A stretch of DNA of 38,437 nucleotides. It comes from Symbiotaphrina buchneri. Its lineage: Eukaryota > Ascomycota > Symbiotaphrinales > Symbiotaphrinaceae. Positions within the stretch are counted from its first letter, which is position 1; every line of letters begins with the position of its first letter. Location of the stretch: assembly GCA_001599915.1 (NCBI GenBank), contig BCIG01000043.1, positions 1 to 38,437 of the forward strand, read 5' to 3'. Shown piece after piece: positions 28,546 through 38,437 of this stretch. The notes below the pieces were generated by a model. It did not search any database, was not told where the DNA came from, and was given only the letters and a program-made list of their open reading frames with translations. Both the position numbers and the translations under genes were made by a program.

Positions 28546-28886
28546 AAAGAACAGATTAGGACGTCTCCTAGAGAGAAACGAATGAGGAAATCCACCTATT
28601 CAGTCCTGTCGTGGAGGATTCACTGCCCTTCCCTTGGACCAATCAGTAGCAACCTATAGTCCTGAATTCACCGCGTGGCTGGCACAACAGCCACACAACG
28701 TGCCATCTCACTTCCCTCCTCTTCCCTCCTCTTCCTCTCATCTCCATCGTCCCACCTCATCTCAGACCCAAGCGTTACGACAGCATTTCCTGATCGCAAA
28801 GCTTTCCTGAGAGCCCGCACAACTTTTGAACACCATTAGAGCATCTTGTGATACTCGCTTTCGTGTTCAAAAAGCTTTCCTACAAG
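28546..28886. other. Intergenic region; left border of the accessory segment
   Basis: No gene is seen. A C/T-rich tract with CTTCCCTCCTCTTCC repeated lies at about 28,710-28,750, just upstream of the Arg/Ser-rich ORF, and would suit a leader. No housekeeping gene is seen from here to the right edge. Confidence 0.45.
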
Positions 28887-29363
28887 ATGGGCAGAGCGAC
28901 GGACAGGTCGCGCGAGTTTGCGGAGCGAAGAGGGAGAGGATCGCAGCCGCCAGTAACGGGTAGACACAGAGAGCGCACGGCGCGTTGGCGCCAAAGAATG
29001 GCAGAACAGCAGAGACAGCAGGAGAGAGGAGAAGAAGCAAGAGAAGAAGAGGGCCGTGGCCGTCGTGAAAGGTCACGGTCACCCCGTCGTGTCGAAGGCC
29101 GACGAAGTCGATCGCCTCGTCGTGTCGAGCGTCGACGAAGCAGATCCCCTCGTCATGTCGAGGCAACACTAGAACGACCACAGTCAGAGTGGCGTGAAAG
29201 GTCGGCGATGCCGGCTCAGCAAAGGGGAGGGACGCGGAGGAGAGAAGTGGGAGGCCCGCAAGCAGCAGGTTCGATCTCCAACATCCAGGGAGGAGCCACC
29301 TTCAGCGGCGCTTCTCCCTTTGGGAACCTCTCTTTGGCAACGTCACCGCCGCCCAGACCTTGA
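28887..29363 (+). CDS. Arg/Ser-rich low-complexity ORF
   Basis: An open frame of 158 residues from an ATG with a good context (CAAGATGG). It is extremely Arg/Glu/Gln-rich, with three tandem SRSPRRVE-type repeats (about residues 66-95) like the RS domains of splicing factors, then EWRERSAMPAQQRGG and a Gly/Ser/Pro-rich end. No RNA-recognition motif is present, so it is not a standard SR protein. The RS-coding part is repeated in diverged form about 330 bases downstream. The stop codon overlaps the ATG of the next ORF (TGATG). It may be a real small gene, one half of a spliced gene, or a decayed repeat. I cannot choose by eye. Confidence 0.42.
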   Translation: MGRATDRSREFAERRGRGSQPPVTGRHRERTARWRQRMAEQQRQQERGEEAREEEGRGRRERSRSPRRVEGRRSRSPRRVERRRSRSPRHVEATLERPQSEWRERSAMPAQQRGGTRRREVGGPQAAGSISNIQGGATFSGASPFGNLSLATSPPPRP

Positions 29364-29525
29364 TGGGTAGCAACCAAGGCAGACATGGCCGTCTTGAAAG
29401 GCCATTGTCACCGCATCGTGTCGAGCACCAACGAATCTGGTCTCCTCACGGTGTCGAGGCAACACCAGCACGACCACAGTTAGAGTGGCGTAATAGGTCG
29501 GCAATGCCGGCTGAACAAAGGGAAG
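29055..29525 (+). repeat. Diverged direct duplication within the Arg/Ser-rich ORFs
   Basis: About 29,055-29,230 and 29,388-29,525 are related: both read GGCCGTC.TGAAAGG, then CG.GTGTCGAG repeats, GTCGAGGCAACAC, CGACCACAGT.AGAGTGGCGT and AGGTCGGC.ATGCCGGCT. The right copy lacks one SRSPRRVE unit. Spacing is about 300-330 bp. Confidence 0.75.
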
Positions 29526-29797
29526 GAGGAAGAAGAGGAAGAGGAACAGGGCCGGCATCAGAGATGGCCAGCAACCCTCGCGATCGTGGTCGTGGAACCG
29601 CGGCTCAAACGGGCAGACAAGGGGACCTTGTGATGGGCGCTTGGAGGGGATGGAGGGACTGGGGTACTGGAACAGTACAACTGCCCCTCCGACGACGACA
29701 GACACCACCGCCGCCTCCACCACCCCAACAATCTCGCCCGGGTGGTTTCTCTGGTCTTATGGAGAAGGAGGAGGAGGTCGAGGAGAAGAATGAGTAG
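29363..29797 (+). CDS. ORF derived from duplication of the Arg/Ser-rich ORF
   Basis: A 144-codon frame that begins within the stop codon of the preceding ORF. Its first 55 residues are a diverged copy of residues 55-115 of that ORF: SPHRVEHQRIWSPHGVEAT and EWRNRSAMPAEQRE match SPRRVE...SPRHVEAT and EWRERSAMPAQQRG. The rest is new: RGRGTGP, an eight-Pro run (PPPPPPPQQS) and an acidic end KEEEVEEKNE. The RS character is weaker than in the upstream copy. It could be the second exon of one gene, an independent copy or a non-functional duplicate. Confidence 0.33.
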   Translation: MGSNQGRHGRLERPLSPHRVEHQRIWSPHGVEATPARPQLEWRNRSAMPAEQREGGRRGRGTGPASEMASNPRDRGRGTAAQTGRQGDLVMGAWRGWRDWGTGTVQLPLRRRQTPPPPPPPQQSRPGGFSGLMEKEEEVEEKNE

Positions 29798-29829
29798 AGT
29801 AGGGCGGCAGCGAGTACGTCTCTCAAAAG

Positions 29830-30275
29830 CCTGGATGCCACTCTAGAGACCTAGGTATCGACTCCGATACGGGATACCCCCTATCCTATGACTGGATGCT
29901 GCTCCAGAGACTTCCAGAGACTTTGGTACGGGATAATCGTCATCCTATGCTTGGATGCCACTCCAAATGACCTCTGGGATACTTTTTATCCTATGCCTGG
30001 ATGCCGCTCCAGACGACTTCCGGGATACTGGTTATCCTATGCCTGGGTGCCGCTCCAGAGACCTCCGATACGGGATACTCGTTATCCTATGCCTGGATTG
30101 GCATTCCAGATGACCTCCGATACGGGATACTCGTTATCCTATGCCTGGATTGGCATTCCAGATGACCTCTGATACGGGATACCTGTTATCCTATGCCTGG
30201 ATTGGCACTCCAGAGACCTTCGATACGGGGTACTCGTTATCCTATGCCTGGATTGACACTCCAGAGCACCTTCGA
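29830..30275. repeat. Minisatellite, 46-59 bp units
   Basis: TATCCTATG-type cores (one CATCCTATG) start at about 29,882, 29,941, 29,987, 30,033, 30,083, 30,135, 30,187 and 30,238, so periods are 59, 46, 46, 50, 52, 52 and 51. Each core is followed by CTGGAT, a GCCxCTCCAGA or GGCAxTCCAGA segment and CGATACGGGATACTCGT. A partial unit precedes at 29,830. Units 5-8 are the most alike, so the array probably expanded at its right end. The ORFs across it on both strands are repeat by-products. Confidence 0.9.
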
Positions 30276-30978
30276 CGAGTCCGCAATTTTCAGTAGTGTT
30301 GGTGACCAGGTGCCCCGGCGTGGGTAAAGGTAAGACGGACTGCACCAACAGACCCATCCCGCATGAGCTTTAAGATAGCTAGTTTCAAATGAAAGCATCA
30401 GGCCTCCCGTCAGCTCACGCATTGACTTCACTCCTTGATCCCAAGTACCTGTAGATTGCCGAGTGATGTTAGATGCCATCCAGATATCATCTTCATGCCT
30501 GTTACCGATCTGTAGATAGATCAATCTCAGTTGCTTCTGCGTCAGAGATAGATGAGTAGATGGGCAGATGTATCGCCGATGATCGTTGACATCATGAGGT
30601 GTGTGACTGAGAACTGGTACGGTACGCGGGGTTTGGCGCTAGCAGTAACTCTAAATTTAAGCTTCATCTATTGTTTTCCACCATGGAGTCAAGTCCTCTG
30701 CTGGCTAACATCAAGGAAAGCATTAATACTCAAAATTCGCTTTATGCGCGCAGGTATTCTTTATTCATAAATGTTTTCACGGGTTCCATCACAAGGGGGA
30801 AGTTTCTTTAGCAGCAAAACACAGTATTTTTGCCGTACAGCATAATGTTAGAATTTCCCCGAAACTGCGGGAGCCCTATCTACTGTATGGTCATATCCGT
30901 ATGAAATGACCAAACCTTTATGATGGTCTTCGTCACGCATCCGAAAACATCCGAACCGATCTTCATTACCGGACTTTA
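30276..30978. other. Spacer and 3' flank of array copy 1
   Basis: No gene is seen from 30,276 to about 30,780. From about 30,785 the sequence resembles the 3' flanks of the other array copies: CCATCAC, then ACAGTATTTT, then ATAATGT and, nearer the gene, ATGGTCTTCG. The repeat unit therefore seems to begin here. Confidence 0.4.
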
Positions 30979-31497
30979 CTACTTCCAGATCCTTTCCTCC
31001 TTCTCTGACAGCAAGTTCACCCACAAGCCCACCGTGGGCTTGGTATCTCCGGATGGCGTTTTATGGGTGGGCTTGTTGCCCTCAGTGTCCTCCTGAAGAA
31101 TGGTCTCCGCCATGTCTGATGTAAGTTTGTCCAATCTGACGTCTGTTCTTGATGTTAGACCTCTGCTTAGAAACGAGGAAATGCAGACGCACTCATTCTG
31201 GTCTTCTTGTTCTTGCGCTTAGGCTTCTTCTTCTGCTTTGGCGCAACTTCCACTCCCTTGACGAGCGCTGAAATCTCATCTGCCGCGAGACCTTTCTCTG
31301 TTAGGTCCCTAGACGACCCGTCTGGTGAGTGGAACAATACCTCTTGGTCTAATGTCTTTAGGCCCGATCACCGTGGCCTTGAGACCAGCTGGGCTACCCG
31401 ACGGATCCCAATCCAAGACGGGATGGTAGTAGAGAGGATTCGTCCCAGAGAAATTTGCGTTCTTATTGTTCTGGATGCTGTTGAAGGAAGACATCAT
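30979..31497 (-). CDS. Array copy 1: small basic protein of an unrecognised family
   Basis: Minus-strand exons are inferred at 31497-31341, 31297-31193 and 31142-30979, giving 141 residues. Order of features: MMSSF start, LYYHPVLDWDP motif, EISALVKG, a basic block KRKNKKTRM, then VRLDKLTSDMAETIL, KTPSGDTKP and VGLWVNLLSEKEERIWK at the end. The second intron (50 nt; GTGCGT donor, CTAAC branch, CAG acceptor) sits at the same phase-1 position in all four copies and is convincing. The first (43 nt; GTATTG donor) is weaker: its CTAAC is only three bases from the acceptor used here, and a second acceptor at GGCAG keeps the same frame. If that intron is not real, this copy is frameshifted. The frame is open upstream to an ATG at 31590. 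I recognise no domain; the basic block suggests a nuclear location. Confidence 0.5.
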
Positions 31498-31975
31498 GGA
31501 GGATCCGTCCTGAGGACACCAGAATTGAGAGGGTTGAGTTGTAGAAAATTCAAGGCGTAAGGTCTTCGAAGAATCGAGGTGAAGATTCAAACGGATGAGG
31601 AGACAGGAAGGGGGGAGAAGAGAAGTACGTCGATGAGATATCTGGTGTGAATGAATCTGGGACAGGTGCTAGGCAGAAAGTACGTGCTCTTCGACAACAA
31701 CTGTGGTTATGCAATGGAGATTCACTTGCAAGTTGGCCGATGGTTGGACCTCACCGGCCTGTAGTTCTGTAGATCTGATAGGATTCACTCGCAGCAGCAT
31801 TTTTATGCGTCAAACCCTGAACATGCTTGCAGGTACTGGATAGTCCAACCCCTGCAAATCCTGGGTATGATACACTGTCTGACGGAGAAAGGTGCAAAAA
31901 GGACCGCAGCTTGTGCATGTTTACGGCATGTATAAAGGAAAAACAGCTAACAAATAGTCAGTCCATGACCCTATC

Positions 31976-32080
31976 CTATGCTTCTTCCTCTGCAGTGGCG
32001 ATCATGAGTTTGCAGTGCCTGCTGAAATTGGACGACCAGACACTGATGGCATCCTCAGGGCTTGTATGAGGCATTGTCAT
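31976..32080 (-). CDS. Short ORF behind a promoter-like block shared with unit 4
   Basis: A 34-codon frame (MTMPHTSPEDAISVW start, TAEEEA end) lies on the minus strand between array copies 1 and 2. About 85 bases upstream is the TTTATATGA-containing block that is nearly identical in unit 4, where the aligned position also has an ATG (ATGACAACATC versus ATGACAATGCC, both after AAAT or similar). The two peptides differ after a few codons, so protein-level conservation is weak. It may be a leader of a non-coding transcript. Confidence 0.2.
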   Translation of the reverse strand: MTMPHTSPEDAISVWSSNFSRHCKLMIATAEEEA

Positions 32081-32158
32081 ATTTTCTGGTCACAACCCGC
32101 GCACTGGAGGCCTCGAAATCCTGTAGTAGAATCATTTTCATTGTCGTAGTATCGTTGC

Positions 32159-32217
32159 TAGTCATATAAACCCAGAGAATGCCTTTGTTTGCACATGTTC
32201 TGGACAACCACTGCACA
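32159..32217 (-). promoter_or_regulatory. Conserved block with TATA-like sequence, unit 1
   Basis: On the minus strand it reads AAAGGCATTCTCTGGG followed by TTTATATGAC. It is almost unchanged in unit 4 (about 35,850-35,908), although surrounding sequence has diverged more. A TATA-like core promoter for a minus-strand transcript is the simplest reading. Confidence 0.4.
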
Positions 32218-32421
32218 AATTAGCACCATCACGAAATCGCAAGTCACTTGTGGAAACATGGTACAGTAGTTTCACCGTGTGACAAAGCCATTTGATTCCT
32301 TGGAATCCATAAGCTGCCGGTGGCCTAACTACTTCCTGGTCAGACTTTTAGAGAATAACCGTATCCTGCACCGTCTTGGCCGATCTTCTGCAGACTTCTC
32401 CGGATTGTTCCAAGCCACACT

Positions 32422-32946
32422 TTACTCCCTCCAGGTCTTTTCTTCCTCCTGGGACAACAAGTTGACCCAGGAGGCCACCGCCGGCTTGGTTCTGCCGGAC
32501 GGCGCCATTTCCCTTGGCCTGTTACCCCCTTCTCCTTCTTCCTGTAGGACAGCCTGTGCTGCCGCTGTGGCGAGCTTCTCTAGACGAATGTCTGCTTTCG
32601 ATGTTAGCCCTCTAGCCAGAAATGATGGTAATGCAGACTTACACATCCTAGTCTTCTTATTTTTGCGTTTGGACCTTTTCTTTGGACCCCCTTCTGCTCC
32701 TGCATCACCCTTTGGTACCTCATCTGCTCCAAATAATGCCTCTGTTAGATCATGAACTGGCCCATACTATGGACGGAACCAACCTGCTGTTGTGGCTCCT
32801 TTGTGCCCAACCGCCGTGTCCTTGAAACCGCACCTGCCACCCGACGGTTCAGCCCTCATCAACGAGGAGTGCTCCGCCGGGTATCAGTCCATGGTGGGAT
32901 GGCAGCACAACGCACTTGATGCTGAGAAGCTCCTCTTGTGCTCCAT
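32422..32946 (-). pseudogene. Array copy 2: same family, one nonsense codon in the first exon
   Basis: Minus-strand exons correspond to 32946-32784, 32741-32643 and 32591-32422 (432 nt in frame). The order matches copy 1: MEHKRSFSASSAL, CCHPTMD, GADEVPKGDAG, KRKNKKTRM, IRLEKLATAAAQAVL, APSGRTKPAVASWVNLLS, EEEKTWRE. The codon for the conserved Trp of HPTMDW is TGA at 32,886-32,884; everything after stays open under this splicing. The second intron is textbook (GTAAGT, GCTAAC, CAG, 51 nt). The first (42 nt, GTTGGT donor) is doubtful, and read through it contains a further stop. Downstream initiation could give a truncated product containing the basic block and the C-terminal motif. I call it a probable pseudogene of the host's own family. 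Confidence 0.5.
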
Positions 32947-33451
32947 CTCGTGAGCAGAAGACGGCTTGGAAGGAGGACCGGTCTGGAATTTATGATTCTT
33001 GAGGGGCGGGAGAGAGGAACAGGAGGTTTGAAACCTGGACTTAGACGCTTGAGAGTATGTCAGGCGTAGAAGTTCGCTTTTGACACAAGAAGAGAGAGAC
33101 AGAGATGAGAAGTGCCATGTCGAAGAAGTGGACAGGACTGGGACAAGATCGGACTTCACTTTCTTCAGTAACCTTTGCGCTTGTTGCCCCTGGTACAATA
33201 GCAATTCACTGCCAGATGGGTGATATACGGGCCTGCGGTCTCTCCTCAATCCATTGGTACCATCACGAAATCGAAAGTCATTTTTGGAAATATGGTCCAG
33301 TGTTTTCACCAGATAATGTCGAATTTTCTGTAACCGCCACAGCCCTACCTAGCTTGCCTGGTCAAACCCCTGGTGCAGCTGACAAACTTTGTTGATGGTC
33401 TACGCCGATTCTTCTATTCCACTCGACCCATATCATGACCACGGTCAAGGC

Positions 33452-33914
33452 TTAGTTGAACCTCCAAACTTTTTCCTCCTTAGGAGACATCAAGTTGACC
33501 CATGAAGCGACTACGGCCTTGGTACTGCCCCTTCCTGGCCGCGTCTTTTCCACAGGCTTGCTGTGTCCTTCTTCTTCCTGCGACTCCGGATGCGAGTATA
33601 TTAAGACGGTTATCTATCCTTGATGTCAGTCCTTAGCTTAGAAGCAATAGGAACGCATACGGACTCATTCTCGTCTTTTTGTTCTTTCGAAAACACTTCT
33701 TCTTCTTCGGAAGCTCGCCCCATTCCCTCGAGACATCATCGGCCTCCTCCCTGACTAGATCTTGTGAGTCTTTGGTCAACCATTCATCCAGCTGGAATTT
33801 ACCTGCTGGTTGAACCTTTTGGTCAGCGGCAGTAGTTGTGCCCGCCGGCTGCCAATCCATTGTAGGGTGGTAAAGCAACGTCCTCGACGCTGAGTAGCTC
33901 CTCTTATGGTCCAT
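33452..33914 (-). pseudogene. Array copy 3: same family, altered C-terminus
   Basis: Start MDHKRSYSASRTLLYHPTMDW at 33914, quoted in parts: MDHKRSYSAS and LLYHPTMDWQP. The frame continues through KFQLDEWLTKD and LPKKKKCFRKNKKTRM to the conserved second intron (33664-33614, 51 nt; donor GTCCGT, CTGAC branch). The last exon begins NNRLNILASGVA, then shifts frame relative to copies 1, 2 and 4: the expected KAVVASWVNLMSPKEEKVW is present but in the +1 frame, ending at 33,452, while the frame in use ends at 33,480. The product would be about 111 residues if the first intron (33802-33755) is spliced, or 127 if read through. Read-through aligns with copy 4 (xFxxxEWL), so I favour no first intron here. 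Confidence 0.48.
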
Positions 33915-34591
33915 CTCGTTAGCGGAGGATATTTTCCAAGGATTCATGCTGAGTATGACACGAGCGGCGAGAAAGACAAAGAGGACTTCCTAAAGGTGGA
34001 GGAAGACTCCCCCAGGAGGATGTTAGGATCTCAGGAAGATCCCAGGAGCAGAAGTGATGCTTTAGCAAGAGGGCAAGACAGAGGAGGAGTGCCGTGTAGG
34101 AGGTGTGGACAGGGCGTAGAAACAAGTTCACGACAGATAAGAGACAAGATCGGACTTCACTTTCTTCAGGAACCATCGTGCTTGTTGCAATAGCAATTCA
34201 CTGCCAGATGTGTAATTTACGGGCATCGCTGGCTCTCAGTTGTTCAGATCGTACAATTCGCGCACCAGTAACATTTTATACGCGAAGGTTCCAGGTATGG
34301 CGGCCTGTGATAGATCCTTTCCTTTGCGTTTATAATCAGCATCCATCCTCCATGTCCCAGCTATATCTGCGGTCTGTCCTCGATTGATTAGTACCATCAC
34401 GAAATCGCAAGTCACTTGTGGAAACCTGATACAGTATTTTCACCGAAATAACATAATTGTCGATTCCTTTGAAAGGTCGTCGCAACCCTATCGATTTCTT
34501 CTAGTTGGCTCGTAATGGGTTGACCACGTCATGGGAAGGTCTCCGCCGGCCCATCTGTCTTCACAGGCCATATCCTCTGCGCGGTCCAAGC

Positions 34592-35071
34592 TTATTTAGA
34601 CCTCCATTTTTCCTCCACCTCAGGCGACAAAAGATTTACCCAGGAGGCCACCGCCGGCTTGGTATTGCCGGACGGCGCCTTTCGTGCGGGTCCATTATCC
34701 CCTTCTTCGTTCCTTAGGACCATCTCCGCAACTTCAGATGCAAGCTTCTCAAGACGGACAACTAGTCTAGATGTTAGGCCTCTTCTGCTTAGAATCGATG
34801 GGAATGCAGACGCACACATCCTGGTCTTTTTGTTCTTGCGTGAGTTTTTCTTCAGCACTTTCATTCCCTCTCTGCCTTCTTTCGAAGCTTCGTCTATCTC
34901 GAAGAGTAAGCCTTGATTCAACCATTCTGGTACGTGGAACTGACATTCTGGTTGGTTCTCTTTATGGACCCCCAAGGTCGGGCGCCACTCCATCGTGGGA
35001 TGGTAATAGAGTCTATTTGGCTGTCCGGAGCTCACAGTGTTCGTGTGTTTTCTTGGGTCTGAGAAGGACAT
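34592..35071 (-). CDS. Array copy 4: the best-preserved member of the family
   Basis: From the ATG at 35071 (MSFSDPRKHTNTV) the frame is open without interruption to the stop at 34592: 159 residues unspliced, or 141 with the conserved second intron (34815-34762, 54 nt; GTGCGT donor, CTAAC branch, TAG acceptor) removed. The spliced length equals that of copy 1. Motifs: LYYHPTMEWRP, CQFHVPEWLNQGLLF, KKNSRKNKKTRM, VRLEKLASEVAEMVL, APSGNTKPAVASWVNLLS and EVEEKWRSK. The stretch corresponding to the doubtful first intron is coding here. The frame is open for 44 further codons upstream of the chosen start; the start is set by alignment with the other copies. No known domain; no signal peptide or membrane segment; probably nuclear from the basic block. 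Confidence 0.58.
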   Translation of the reverse strand: MSFSDPRKHTNTVSSGQPNRLYYHPTMEWRPTLGVHKENQPECQFHVPEWLNQGLLFEIDEASKEGREGMKVLKKNSRKNKKTRMCASAFPSILSRRGLTSRLVVRLEKLASEVAEMVLRNEEGDNGPARKAPSGNTKPAVASWVNLLSPEVEEKWRSK

Positions 35072-35562
35072 CCTTGTGTGTTCTGCCTTCCAGGAGATAT
35101 TGTCAGAGCAACAGGATGGAAAATGACGAGTTGGTCGAGGTGGCTGAGATGGAGAGAGATGGCTATCGTAGACGGTCCCCTCAAGAGAGGAAGAAGCCAG
35201 CAAGTGGAGTGCGACTCATCAGGTACAGTGATGTAGATAAGCCTGGGATAAGTGCAAGAGAGATCAGAGAAAGCTCGAGGACAACTTCGTACTGCAGCAG
35301 TGAATGGCTGCGGTGCAATTGTAATTCACTTGCAAAGTTGGACAATGGCTGGACATCACCAGCTTTTGATCCTGCAGATCTGACAAGATCCAATCATCAA
35401 GAGCATTCTATACACGGAAGTTCAAGGCTGCCGGGGGCAAGGTTCAAATTGACCCGATAAGGCATTATTAAAGCAGTAAATTCCTGTTTGCACACGCATT
35501 CTGTTCATGACTGGACGAACAAAGGGGAAATTGTCAGTTCAGGGGTCTATCATATGCTCCCC

Positions 35563-35667
35563 CTACACTTCTCCTGCTCTGCGGTCTGCTGTTCGAGCCT
35601 TCTCGACGATCTTAGCAACTTCCTGAATTATTGAAGTGTCTGCTCCTGAGTGTAGGGTTGAAGACAT
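35563..35667 (-). CDS. Short ORF in unit 4, speculative
   Basis: A 34-codon minus-strand frame, MSSTLHSGADTS then IIQEVAKIVEKARTAD, predicted to be one amphipathic helix. It overlaps the 3' part of the next ORF in another frame. Support is only the open frame and helical character. Confidence 0.15.
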   Translation of the reverse strand: MSSTLHSGADTSIIQEVAKIVEKARTADRRAGEV

Positions 35668-35758
35668 GATGGTGCAGTGCATGTTGAATGGGAAACCAGA
35701 AGCCGGTGCCGTCGGGTAGCACATGGGCCTCCTCGTGATCTGTCAGAGATGTTGTCAT
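35612..35758 (-). CDS. Short ORF behind the promoter-like block in unit 4
   Basis: A 48-codon minus-strand frame (MTTSLTDHEEAHVLPDGTGF, then WFPIQHALHHHVFN). It lies about 100 bases downstream of the TTTATATGA-containing block shared with unit 1 and begins at the aligned ATG. It is longer than, and diverged from, the 34-codon counterpart in unit 1. No domain is recognised. Confidence 0.22.
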   Translation of the reverse strand: MTTSLTDHEEAHVLPDGTGFWFPIQHALHHHVFNPTLRSRHFNNSGSC

Positions 35759-35849
35759 ATTTCCTGGCCACACCCGTGAAGTGGAGGGTCCGTCAGGGTG
35801 CAGTATTTACGACCTGCAGTATGAATATCTTTCATTGTTCATCATATCG

Positions 35850-35908
35850 TTGTTCGTCATATAAACCCAGAGAATGCCTTTGTTAGCACATGTCCTGGAC
35901 AACTGCCG
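35850..35908 (-). promoter_or_regulatory. Conserved block with TATA-like sequence, unit 4
   Basis: The counterpart of the block at 32,159-32,217, with the same CATATAAACCCAGAGAATG (plus strand) and nearby CACATGTCCTGGACAAC. It marks the right end of the repeated unit; sequence similarity is lost just beyond. Confidence 0.4.
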
Positions 35909-36024
35909 CACAATAAAACCATGAGTCTATAAATGGCTGCCATGACCTGCTTGGTTCATCGTCTCCACCGAGAATAGAAAGTCCAAGATCGCGCATAGGC
36001 TTACCTCTGCTGTTTTCAAACAAA

Positions 36025-36252
36025 ATGAATCCTTCTTACGATCCCAGCTAGTTTGATGCTTGTCAAGGATGGACGAAGAAATCCGTCGACAATGCCGTTG
36101 AGCAATTCAAGAGCGGCAACTATGACCAATGGGCCTACAAGCACGTCAACAATTTTGCTAAGAAGAGGGAACAGGTGACAAAGGCCGATGTTGCGGCTTT
36201 GAGAAAACATTGGGAGAACATGGGTTCTCCTTCCAATTCGAAGGATCTTTAG
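36025..36252 (+). pseudogene. 76-codon ORF interrupted by one TAG
   Basis: From ATG 36,025 the frame reads MNPSYDPS, one TAG at 36,049-36,051, then 66 uninterrupted codons: FDACQGWTKKSVDNAVEQF, KSGNYDQWAYKHVNNFAKK, REQVTKADVAALRKHWENM, GSPSNSKDL. The part after the stop has clear coding character (charged, balanced, helical, C- or G-ending codons). A CAG-to-TAG change (Gln) is the simplest origin and would be a CpA-to-TpA change of the RIP type. Other possibilities are stop-codon read-through or a missed intron. I do not recognise the family. Confidence 0.45.
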
Positions 36253-36466
36253 ACCGTTAGCGCTTACTTTCATCAGGGGCCCCGGGTTTGCTGAACATTA
36301 GAAATCCAACTATTTTCGCTCTTTAATTAATTGACCCATGTATTAATTATAATGTGATGTGATGCGGTAACTGATAGTCCCACTGCATAAAGGTTTGGAG
36401 CTGACCCACCATGAGTATCCGCATCGTAAGGCATAGGAGCTACACAGATTGTTAGCTTTCAGAAAT
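36253..36466. other. A/T-rich spacer
   Basis: No gene is seen. It includes AATTAATTGACCCATGTATTAATTAT, in parts AATTAATTGA and ATTAATTAT, an imperfect inverted arrangement at about 36,325-36,350. Confidence 0.35.
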
Positions 36467-36908
36467 ATGAAATTGTGGCATTGCGGACCTATTATATTCT
36501 TGACGCTCTTCTCCTTTTCAAAGAACCGATGGGTAGTATCCACGCTAGCCGGCTTTGTGTCTTCTGACTGTCATCTTCCAGCTTTCATTTGCCGAGAAGA
36601 GTGGAGGTGCAGATCTTCCGTACTCCCATTATGGCGCTTTTCATGTTCTCAGCCTGTATTCCTCAGCACATGGTCATGCACGCGACTCCGGTAGGGAAGG
36701 TCTCTCAGGTTGCCAGGCAAATGATTATTATTCCGCCGATGAAGGGCTGCACAAAGACCTTCTGGTGTCAGTAGCAGATCCCAGTCGTGAGCATATTGGT
36801 CCAACGATCATGGGACAGGACCATGCAACAGCTTTGCCAAAGGCCATCAAAGGCCATATAAGAAGCATCATAGCCATTTGCCTCTTGGGTAGGGAGACCA
36901 TGCGATAA
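36467..36908 (+). CDS. Possible two-exon small secreted protein
   Basis: Exon 36467-36532 encodes MKLWHCGPIIFLTLFSFS and four more residues, a signal-peptide-like start. A 49-nt intron (36533-36581) has a GTAGTA donor, a CTGAC branch site and a TTCCAG acceptor. The second exon (36582-36908) adds 108 residues, LSFAEKSGGADLPYSHYG onward, with GCQANDYYSADEGLHK and VADPSREHIGP, for 130 in total. The junction keeps frame. Against it: the hydrophobic core is short and ends in a basic KNRW, there are few cysteines for a secreted effector, and a 143-codon frame is open on the opposite strand. A tentative model. Confidence 0.3.
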
Positions 36909-38210
36909 GACGCCACGAAACCATTGGGAGCAACCCATGAGCAGGGTCGATCGGCGCATGCCGCCTGACATATATATCATTTTATATATCAGTCGTGGGT
37001 ACAGATTCTCAGGAGATGGGGATTGGACTAGAAAACTTCCGCCCCAATAAATCTGGAAGCATATATATGGAAAAGACACGCTGGGGAACAATGAATTAAA
37101 AGGGACAAAGACCAAACAAAAAAAGGGGAAATGCCCCTTTTTATGTCCCCATACGATGGAAAATGATGGATCACAATTCCTGAAGGATCGCAGTAGCAAA
37201 CGGACAATTGATCCTGTGAATCAGTACAGTCACATATGACTGACGAGCAACGGGAAAAGCGTTGCTGCATCGATCGTATGGGTATAGTGCATCAGGCAAT
37301 AAGCGCAATAGCTTTGGACTGTTGCTGGTATGTAAACGATAGACGACAGCCTCTCTTGGAGGGATAGAAAAGCATGACTATAAGAAGTGAGCTTGGATGC
37401 GAGGCAATGATAGAGTGCCTCGCTAGCATGATATGATATCACAGCCTCTCCAGCTCCCACGTGCCTATGTCTCCTCAAAGATACACAACACCTGCACGGC
37501 TCTGACTGCACAGAGAAATCCGCAGATATTTGCGCCACGTCACACGCACCTGCTGATGGCGCCTGCAAGTGCCCAATGGATACTAGTATGGTCGTCTACC
37601 TTGAAATGCATGCAGCTTGGTGCGAGCAAACACTAAATGCAGGGTACCAACAGGAATTACCACCCGCCAGGACTCATTTGAAGTGATTAACGGCGCTTTC
37701 TGCGCTATAAAACAGTCTGTCAGCATACTCTAGGTCACGTTATATGGTAAGGTATGACTCCACTTGCTTGCTTGCGCTTGCATTGACTGATCCAGGCGAA
37801 CGATGCAGCACTGCCCTACCACAGATGTTTTCTGGCGAGACGGGGCCAGAATGGGAGACTTCGTGCATCCCTTATCTGGAGATGACTCTTATCCCCTGCC
37901 AGGTGACATTGACACGAAGCGAACGATCTTGATGAGTAGCCGCTGTGGATAACGGGTTCGGACAACGACGTCAGGAGCATCTTCCGGCCTCTGAAGTTAG
38001 ATGGCAAGCAATGATTTGTATGGCGAACCTTCCAAACATTTTTGGATCCACCTAGGTGCTAGGTGGGAGGCAAAAGAATTGAAATGCTGAAGAGCTGTAC
38101 GATCGGTCAATCACGACGCGGAATCCTAATATTAATGGTAGGCCAATCAGATTCTGGTATGGCCAGGGATTTCAACGTTTGATATCACCATGTCCATATC
38201 CTTCGTCTAC
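36909..38210. other. Gene-poor right-hand region
   Basis: I find no supportable gene in these 1.3 kb. Minus-strand ORFs at 36,768-37,199 and 37,230-37,568 show no domain or codon signal. There are A/T-rich stretches (TATATATCATTTTATATAT near 36,970) and one strong hairpin near 37,120-37,142. Confidence 0.4.
37102..37150. repeat. Hairpin-forming inverted repeat
   Basis: AAAAAGGGG (37,120-37,128) and CCCCTTTTT (37,134-37,142) can pair around a five-base loop, and an outer GGGACA / TGTCCC pair flanks it. It could form a cruciform in DNA or a stem in a transcript. No flanking target-site duplication was seen. Confidence 0.6.
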
Positions 38211-38212
38211 TT

Positions 38213-38437
38213 CCCTCGCTATCATCATCGTAATCGGAGCGGCTATCGCAATCGTTGATATCTGAATCGCAATCGCTATCGGGTCCGCAATGGATATTGC
38301 AATCGATATCAGGTTCACAATCGAGATCAGGTACGCCATATTAGATCAGGTTCGCCATCTTAGATCAAGGTTCGCCATCTTAAATCAAGGTTCGCCATTG
38401 AGATCAGGTTCGCCATCTCAGATCAGGTTCGCCATCT
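38213..38437. repeat. Degenerate short tandem repeat running off the right edge
   Basis: From about 38,221 to 38,320 variants of ATCGCAATCG and TATCGGGTC alternate. From about 38,325 the unit becomes AGATCAGGTTCGCCATCT (17-20 bp), repeated about six times with small changes (AAGG for AGG, TACG for TTCG) up to the edge. On the minus strand the left part reads as an Asp/Ser/Cys-rich peptide (DSDCDSDINDCDS), but stops in the right part make coding across the block unlikely. Confidence 0.85.

What the first reader, a model, noticed from the sequence alone, without database searches (positions are those of the whole stretch)
30785..35905. Tandem array of an unrecognised small-protein gene family
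Four minus-strand copies share a 5' HPTMDWxP motif, a KNKKTRM basic block, a phase-1 intron and a C-terminal KPAVASWVNLLS motif, none of which I can tie to a known family. Two copies can each be read as 141 residues; the other two carry disruptions. The array sits next to a core gene block and among repeats, which suggests a lineage-restricted family in birth-and-death turnover. The conservation of motif positions despite substantial divergence suggests past selection on the protein.
Basis: partly seen in the sequence, partly recalled or inferred. Interest (0 to 1): 0.75.

Follow-up and report, generated by a model that had tools for sequence, protein, structure and literature searches.

The report
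Decaying tandem array of fungal genes
A fungal chromosome carries four side-by-side copies of a small protein gene that matched no family in the libraries searched, was kept by natural selection for a long time, and now has at most two readable copies, which makes it a real but fairly ordinary case of gene-family turnover.

Summary
The observation largely holds. Four head-to-tail minus-strand copies lie at 31497-30979, 32946-32422, 33947-33452 and 35071-34592; all six pairs match at E<=2e-11. The shared frame was selected as protein: omega 0.11-0.20, neutrality rejected (2dlnL 92-121), and a frame-blind alignment shows third-position excess in the gene but not in the flanks. Pfam and NCBIfam give nothing, PDB sequences only chance-level hits. 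No fungal proteome was available, so 'lineage-restricted' is untested. Corrections: only copy 4 is readable by the simple model (141 aa spliced, 159 aa unspliced). Copy 1 reaches 141 aa only with a second, 43-nt intron of its own. Copies 2 and 3 are broken, and the motifs are less uniform than stated. Extra: the 50-54-nt intron is about as conserved as the best coding blocks, not codon-wise, although synonymous sites are near saturation. Most likely a small, basic, mostly disordered intracellular protein family in birth-and-death turnover.

The parts
34387..35913 (-). repeat unit 4 (longest, with far-upstream segment A and downstream element D)
34592..35071 (-). copy 4: only copy readable by the simple model; 141 aa with the 34815-34762 intron, 159 aa unspliced
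34762..34815 (-). copy 4 phase-1 intron (54 nt, GTGCGT..CTAAC..TAG), conserved at nucleotide level
33452..33947 (-). copy 3: disrupted (frameshift in the last exon; stop if the intron is retained)
33614..33664 (-). copy 3 intron candidate (51 nt, donor GTCCGT does not meet the strict consensus)
32422..32946 (-). copy 2: disrupted (in-frame stops before the basic block)
32592..32642 (-). copy 2 intron (51 nt, GTAAGT..CTAAC..CAG)
30979..31497 (-). copy 1: readable (135 or 141 aa) only with a second intron of its own; otherwise frameshifted between the N-terminal and the basic blocks
31143..31192 (-). copy 1 intron (50 nt, GTGCGT..CTAAC..CAG)
34387..34445 (-). element D downstream of copy 4; 93% identical to 32219-32277 and 84% to 33253-33310
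33253..33310 (-). element D downstream of copy 3
32219..32277 (-). element D downstream of copy 2; abuts the 5' end of unit 1 at 32218/32219 (tandem junction)
35314..35329 (-). upstream motif GTGAATTNCWATTGCA of copy 4, 243 bp before the ATG
   Evidence: pattern derived from these copies
34186..34201 (-). upstream motif of copy 3
33194..33209 (-). upstream motif of copy 2 (1 mismatch)
31710..31725 (-). upstream motif of copy 1 (2 mismatches)

Best explanation
This is a tandem family of small fungal protein genes made by successive head-to-tail duplication of a 1.0-1.5 kb unit (upstream motif, gene, downstream element D), followed by deep divergence and loss. Shown: the repeats, the tandem junction, purifying selection on the shared frame, and the disruptions. 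Inferred: unequal crossing-over as the duplication mechanism; copy 4 as the surviving gene and copies 2 and 3 (possibly 1) as pseudogenes. The protein is probably a small, basic, mostly disordered intracellular protein: an N-terminal YYHPTMDW-like motif, a Lys/Arg block (RKNKKTRM) that could serve as a nuclear-localisation or nucleic-acid-binding patch, a helix (VRLEKLASEVAEMVL), and a C-terminal WVNLLS..EEEKxWR-like helix that could dock a partner. That functional part is a guess from composition (about 0.25 likely).
For: Four copies, 6 of 6 pairs E<=2e-11. One-ratio codon model omega 0.20 on 156 of 179 columns (2dlnL 92-94 against omega=1 in three of three topologies) and 0.11 on the 111 columns complete in all four (2dlnL 118-121). 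Frame-blind DNA alignment: mismatch fractions 0.29/0.27/0.53 by codon position in the last exon, against 0.47/0.45/0.43 and 0.49/0.48/0.42 in the 3' and 5' flanks. Disruptions in copies 2 and 3. One upstream motif per copy, 213-248 bp before the ATG, and no other match in the window at up to 2 mismatches. RIP indices not RIP-like, so decay is probably not by that route. Structure model mostly unstructured, with helices at residues 49-52, 102-122 and 150-157.
Against: No transcript evidence. No homologue outside the window could be sought where it matters (fungal genomes). Four sequences with near-saturated synonymous sites give imprecise omega: NG86 gave a ratio for 5 of 6 pairs, YN00 for only 2 of 6. 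The branch model does not distinguish intact from broken copies (lnL -1851.0 against -1853.0 with 4 more parameters). Copy 1's status depends on an unproven extra intron. The structure model is weak (mean pLDDT 59.9, pTM 0.23).
Confidence: 0.72

Rival explanations
1. The copies are pieces of a mobile element (its small ORF), inserted or duplicated locally.
For: Repeated noncoding elements (D, segment A) travel with the gene and are in part better conserved than the gene (93% and 84%); the array lies in a repeat-rich end of the window.
Against: The copies are head-to-tail in one place, with no further significant hit in the window; one weak inverted repeat of 30 nt or more in 30000-38437 (shorter terminal repeats were not searched); no Pfam match for the copy 1 and copy 4 proteins. 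Genome copy number could not be tested.
Confidence: 0.1
2. The genes have no intron: the 50-54-nt interval is coding, copy 4 is a 159-aa protein and copies 1-3 are all broken.
For: The interval is open in copies 2 and 4 and its read-through peptides align (SASAFPSFLSRGLTSR-like). It is far more conserved than neutral (lnL -212.9 as coding against -255.3 as neutral).
Against: Rare intron consensus at the same place in 3 of 4 copies. Conservation is not codon-wise: a uniform slow-down (lnL -203.7) beats the coding model (-212.9), adding omega gains only 1.2 units, and the two shifted frames show the same constraint; third-position excess p=0.14. Copies 1 and 3 are closed by read-through.
Confidence: 0.2
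3. All four copies are dead relics and the omega signal is ancestral only.
For: Copies 2 and 3 are broken and copy 1 needs an extra intron; start codons of the four copies do not all align.
Against: Copy 4 is free of disruptions, and its own branch has omega 0.185 in the free-ratio fit (that fit is not significantly better than one ratio).
Confidence: 0.18

Closest known systems
Lineage-specific or orphan gene families of filamentous ascomycetes (e.g. the Neurospora set described in PMC10684091; search listing and start of abstract seen)
   Same: Small genes without recognised domains, here in an ascomycete-like genome.
   Different: Here a four-copy tandem array beside core genes; lineage restriction not tested; no HET domain among the 10 ORFs scanned with Pfam, but the window was not scanned exhaustively.
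Tandem birth-and-death gene families in general (recalled)
   Same: Head-to-tail copies, old divergence, mixture of intact and disrupted copies, purifying selection on the frame.
   Different: The family itself has no match in Pfam, NCBIfam or PHROGs and only chance-level PDB hits.
Exitrons / retained coding introns (PMC4484396, PMC10985678; search listing and start of abstract seen)
   Same: Intron with good splice signals that is open in frame in copies 2 and 4.
   Different: Closed in copies 1 and 3; no transcript data; conservation is not codon-wise.

Membership tests
Tandem birth-and-death protein gene family | several homologous head-to-tail copies | tested here: met
   4 copies, 6 of 6 pairs significant
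Tandem birth-and-death protein gene family | shared frame under purifying selection | tested here: met
Tandem birth-and-death protein gene family | mixture of intact and disrupted copies | tested here: met
   copy 4 intact, copies 2 and 3 disrupted, copy 1 conditional
Lineage-restricted (orphan) family | no homologue outside a narrow clade | not testable with these tools
   no fungal genomes held; own genome not held; Pfam, NCBIfam empty, PDB chance level
Transposable element | transposase or reverse transcriptase homology | tested here: not met
   no Pfam match for copy 1 and copy 4 proteins or the unspliced copy 4 frame; other frames of the array were not scanned
Transposable element | terminal repeats and dispersed copies | tested here: inconclusive
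   one weak inverted repeat of 30 nt or more (shorter ones not searched) and no copy elsewhere in the window; genome copy number not testable
Exitron | retained intron keeps the frame | tested here: inconclusive
   open in copies 2 and 4, closed in 1 and 3; no RNA data

The most novel reading that the evidence does not exclude
The short intron is itself a selected element: it is about as conserved among the copies as the best coding blocks, without codon periodicity, while synonymous sites are near saturation. In the intact copy it can be retained in frame, giving 141- and 159-residue forms. An uncatalogued fungal protein family would then carry a regulated, dual-purpose intron kept through repeated duplication.
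Probability: 0.15. Interest if true: 0.5.

Novelty: new member of a known kind. Interest (0 to 1): 0.33.

Why it matters
It adds one apparently uncatalogued, formerly selected small-protein family to the many fungal genes without recognised domains, with stages of copy loss visible side by side. The unusual conservation of a 50-nt intron among otherwise deeply diverged copies is the one feature that a specialist might want to follow.

Tried and rejected
Own-genome search: none held. Searches of viral and prokaryotic contigs with the copy 4 protein found pattern matches (1 and 38) but no relative; these collections are the wrong place for a fungal gene, so this says little. The same searches with the alignment could not be run. 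A DNA scan of viral contigs for part of element D: 0. Rfam on the window at gathering scores: 0; on 30500-36000 at E<=1: 0, so no catalogued RNA in the intron or element D. Folding of element D (4 folds) and the intron (2 folds) as RNA: lowest z-score -1.06. RIP: indices not RIP-like, thresholds recalled. PDB: best E 0.36 by sequence and 0.76 by profile, both chance level. The fold search was not run because the model has mean pLDDT 59.9. PHROGs: none at E<=1 for 2 pieces. A bacterial promoter/terminator scan was run; it is not meaningful for a fungus and its counts were at chance. A text search for four motif strings found 0 papers; searches on orphan families, exitrons and fungal introns gave background only (listings and abstract starts seen, no paper opened). 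Gene conversion: patches of high identity exist, but the patch at the basic block plus intron is among the two best segments in 5 of 6 pairs (not in copies 2-3), which fits constraint better than a single conversion event; conversion is not excluded.

Full report
What is there. The window looks like an ascomycete contig (inference): its aldolase fragment matches 7rgn_A (organism not shown) and a Candida albicans chain best in the PDB list, and aldolase, RSN1/PHM7 transporter, ubiquitin hydrolase, Hva1-TUDOR, oxysterol-binding and exonuclease domains were found in its left part (10 ORFs given, 6 with a match). No whole genome is held for it. From 30.8 to 35.9 kb four minus-strand copies of one gene lie head to tail. 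BLASTN of the window against itself gives significant matches for 6 of 6 pairs of copies (best E per pair from 2.6e-28 to 1.7e-11 within the genes), and TBLASTN with the copy 4 protein finds copies 2, 1 and 3 at 1.3e-20, 1e-17 and 6e-16, with the next hit in the window at 0.12.

Unit structure. Each copy belongs to a unit of about 1.0-1.5 kb. One upstream motif (GTGAATTNCWATTGCA, derived from these copies, so its match to them is by construction) occurs 4 times in the window at up to 2 mismatches, once per copy, 213-248 bp before the ATG. A 58-59-bp element D lies downstream of copies 2, 3 and 4 (84-93% identical among them) and is much weaker after copy 1 (about 0.5). Copies 1 and 4 share a far-upstream segment (32218-32120 and 35913-35813, 84%); copies 2 and 3 share another. 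Element D of unit 2 abuts the start of unit 1 at 32219/32218, as a tandem junction would. Unequal crossing-over is inferred from this.

Gene models. Copy 4 reads without disruption, 141 aa with one phase-1 intron (34815-34762) or 159 aa unspliced. Copy 2 has in-frame stops before the basic block; copy 3 has a frameshift in the last exon. The region of that optional first intron shows no codon signal (mismatch 0.54/0.50/0.51 by phase) and is as diverged as the flanks, so it is either a loose linker or an intron in some copies.

Selection. Stops, gaps and masked codons were left out of the counts. NG86 gave dN/dS of 0.17-0.28 for 5 of 6 pairs and no value for one because dS was saturated; YN00 ran for 2 of 6 pairs (0.35, 0.26) and failed for 4. 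A four-taxon codon model gave omega 0.20 on the 156 of 179 columns with at least two copies and 0.11 on the 111 columns with all four; omega=1 was rejected in three of three topologies (2dlnL 92-94 and 118-121). Because that alignment was guided by protein, I repeated the count on a frame-blind DNA alignment: in the last exon the mismatch fraction is 0.29, 0.27 and 0.53 for codon positions 1, 2 and 3; in the 3' flank 0.47, 0.45, 0.43; in the 5' flank 0.49, 0.48, 0.42. So the protein was under purifying selection for much of the time since duplication. A free-ratio model did not improve the fit significantly (lnL -1851.0 against -1853.0), so relaxed selection on the broken copies is not shown.

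The intron. A strict fungal-type consensus (recalled: GTRNGT, CTRAC, YAG; 45-75 nt) has 5 hits on the minus strand of the window and 3 on the plus strand; 3 of the 5 are at this interval in copies 1, 2 and 4. Sixty simulated sequences had a mean of 0.67 and a maximum of 6 per strand. Copy 3 fails at its donor. The three are homologous, so they count as one event. The interval has a mean pairwise identity of 0.72, close to the RKNKKTRM and WVNLL blocks (0.74 each) and above the last exon (0.64) and the near flanks (0.49). With branch lengths fixed from the undisputed coding columns, neutral evolution is rejected (lnL -255.3), coding constraint does better (-212.9), and a uniform slow-down to 0.18 of the neutral rate does better still (-203.7); adding omega gains 1.2 units, and the two shifted frames show the same pattern. 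Third-position excess is not significant (p=0.14). The simplest reading is a real intron with unusual nucleotide-level conservation; an unspliced coding stretch with extra constraint is the rival. Gene conversion may contribute: one 71-column patch here is 89% identical between copies 1 and 4.

What it is not, as far as tested. No Pfam or NCBIfam family at E<=10 for the copy 4 and copy 1 proteins, no Pfam family at E<=5 for the unspliced copy 4 frame, no PHROGs family at E<=1, only chance-level PDB sequences, no Rfam family. No RIP signature: TA/AT 0.66 and (CA+TG)/(AC+GT) 1.29 over the array, and no 1-kb window (step 500) with a composite index above 0.01 (thresholds recalled). One weak inverted repeat of 30 nt or more in 30-38.4 kb. 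None of these libraries is a fungal proteome, so absence of a match does not show that the family is restricted to one lineage.

How it may work. The structure model of the unspliced copy 4 frame, with seven rows all from this window, has mean pLDDT 59.9 and pTM 0.23; it shows helices at 49-52, 102-122 and 150-157 and no confident fold. The N-terminus has no hydrophobic stretch that would suggest secretion (by eye; no program run). I commit to a small intracellular protein, mostly disordered, in which the Lys/Arg block directs it to the nucleus or to nucleic acid and the C-terminal helix docks a partner; this rests on composition alone and I give it about 0.25.

Verdict. The finding is real and mostly well read. 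It is an apparently uncatalogued family of a familiar kind: a tandem array in birth-and-death turnover, with one clearly readable copy, one conditional and two broken. The conserved short intron is the only feature that goes beyond the ordinary.

Noticed in passing
window 36025-36252 (+): A small ORF (MNPSYDPS, a stop, then FDACQGWTKKSVDNAVEQFKSGNYDQWAYKHVNNFAKKREQVTKADVAALRKHW...) next to the array, broken by an early in-frame stop; no significant Pfam match for the part after the stop (best E 0.16).
   Followed up: partly
window 29829-30275 and 38308-38437: Minisatellites with 52-nt and 19-nt units on either side of the array; the second runs to the window end.
   Followed up: no
window 28830-29797 (+): Overlapping ORFs (28830-29363, 29198-29797) rich in Arg-Ser/Pro-Arg, with a 119-bp duplication at 29112-29230 and 29408-29526 (81%); no Pfam match for the first.
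   Followed up: no
window 34387-34445, 33253-33310, 32219-32277 (-): Element D, 84-93% identical among three units whose genes match at 65-77% in the same search; no stable RNA fold and no Rfam match. Role unknown, perhaps a 3' end signal or a recombination point.
   Followed up: partly
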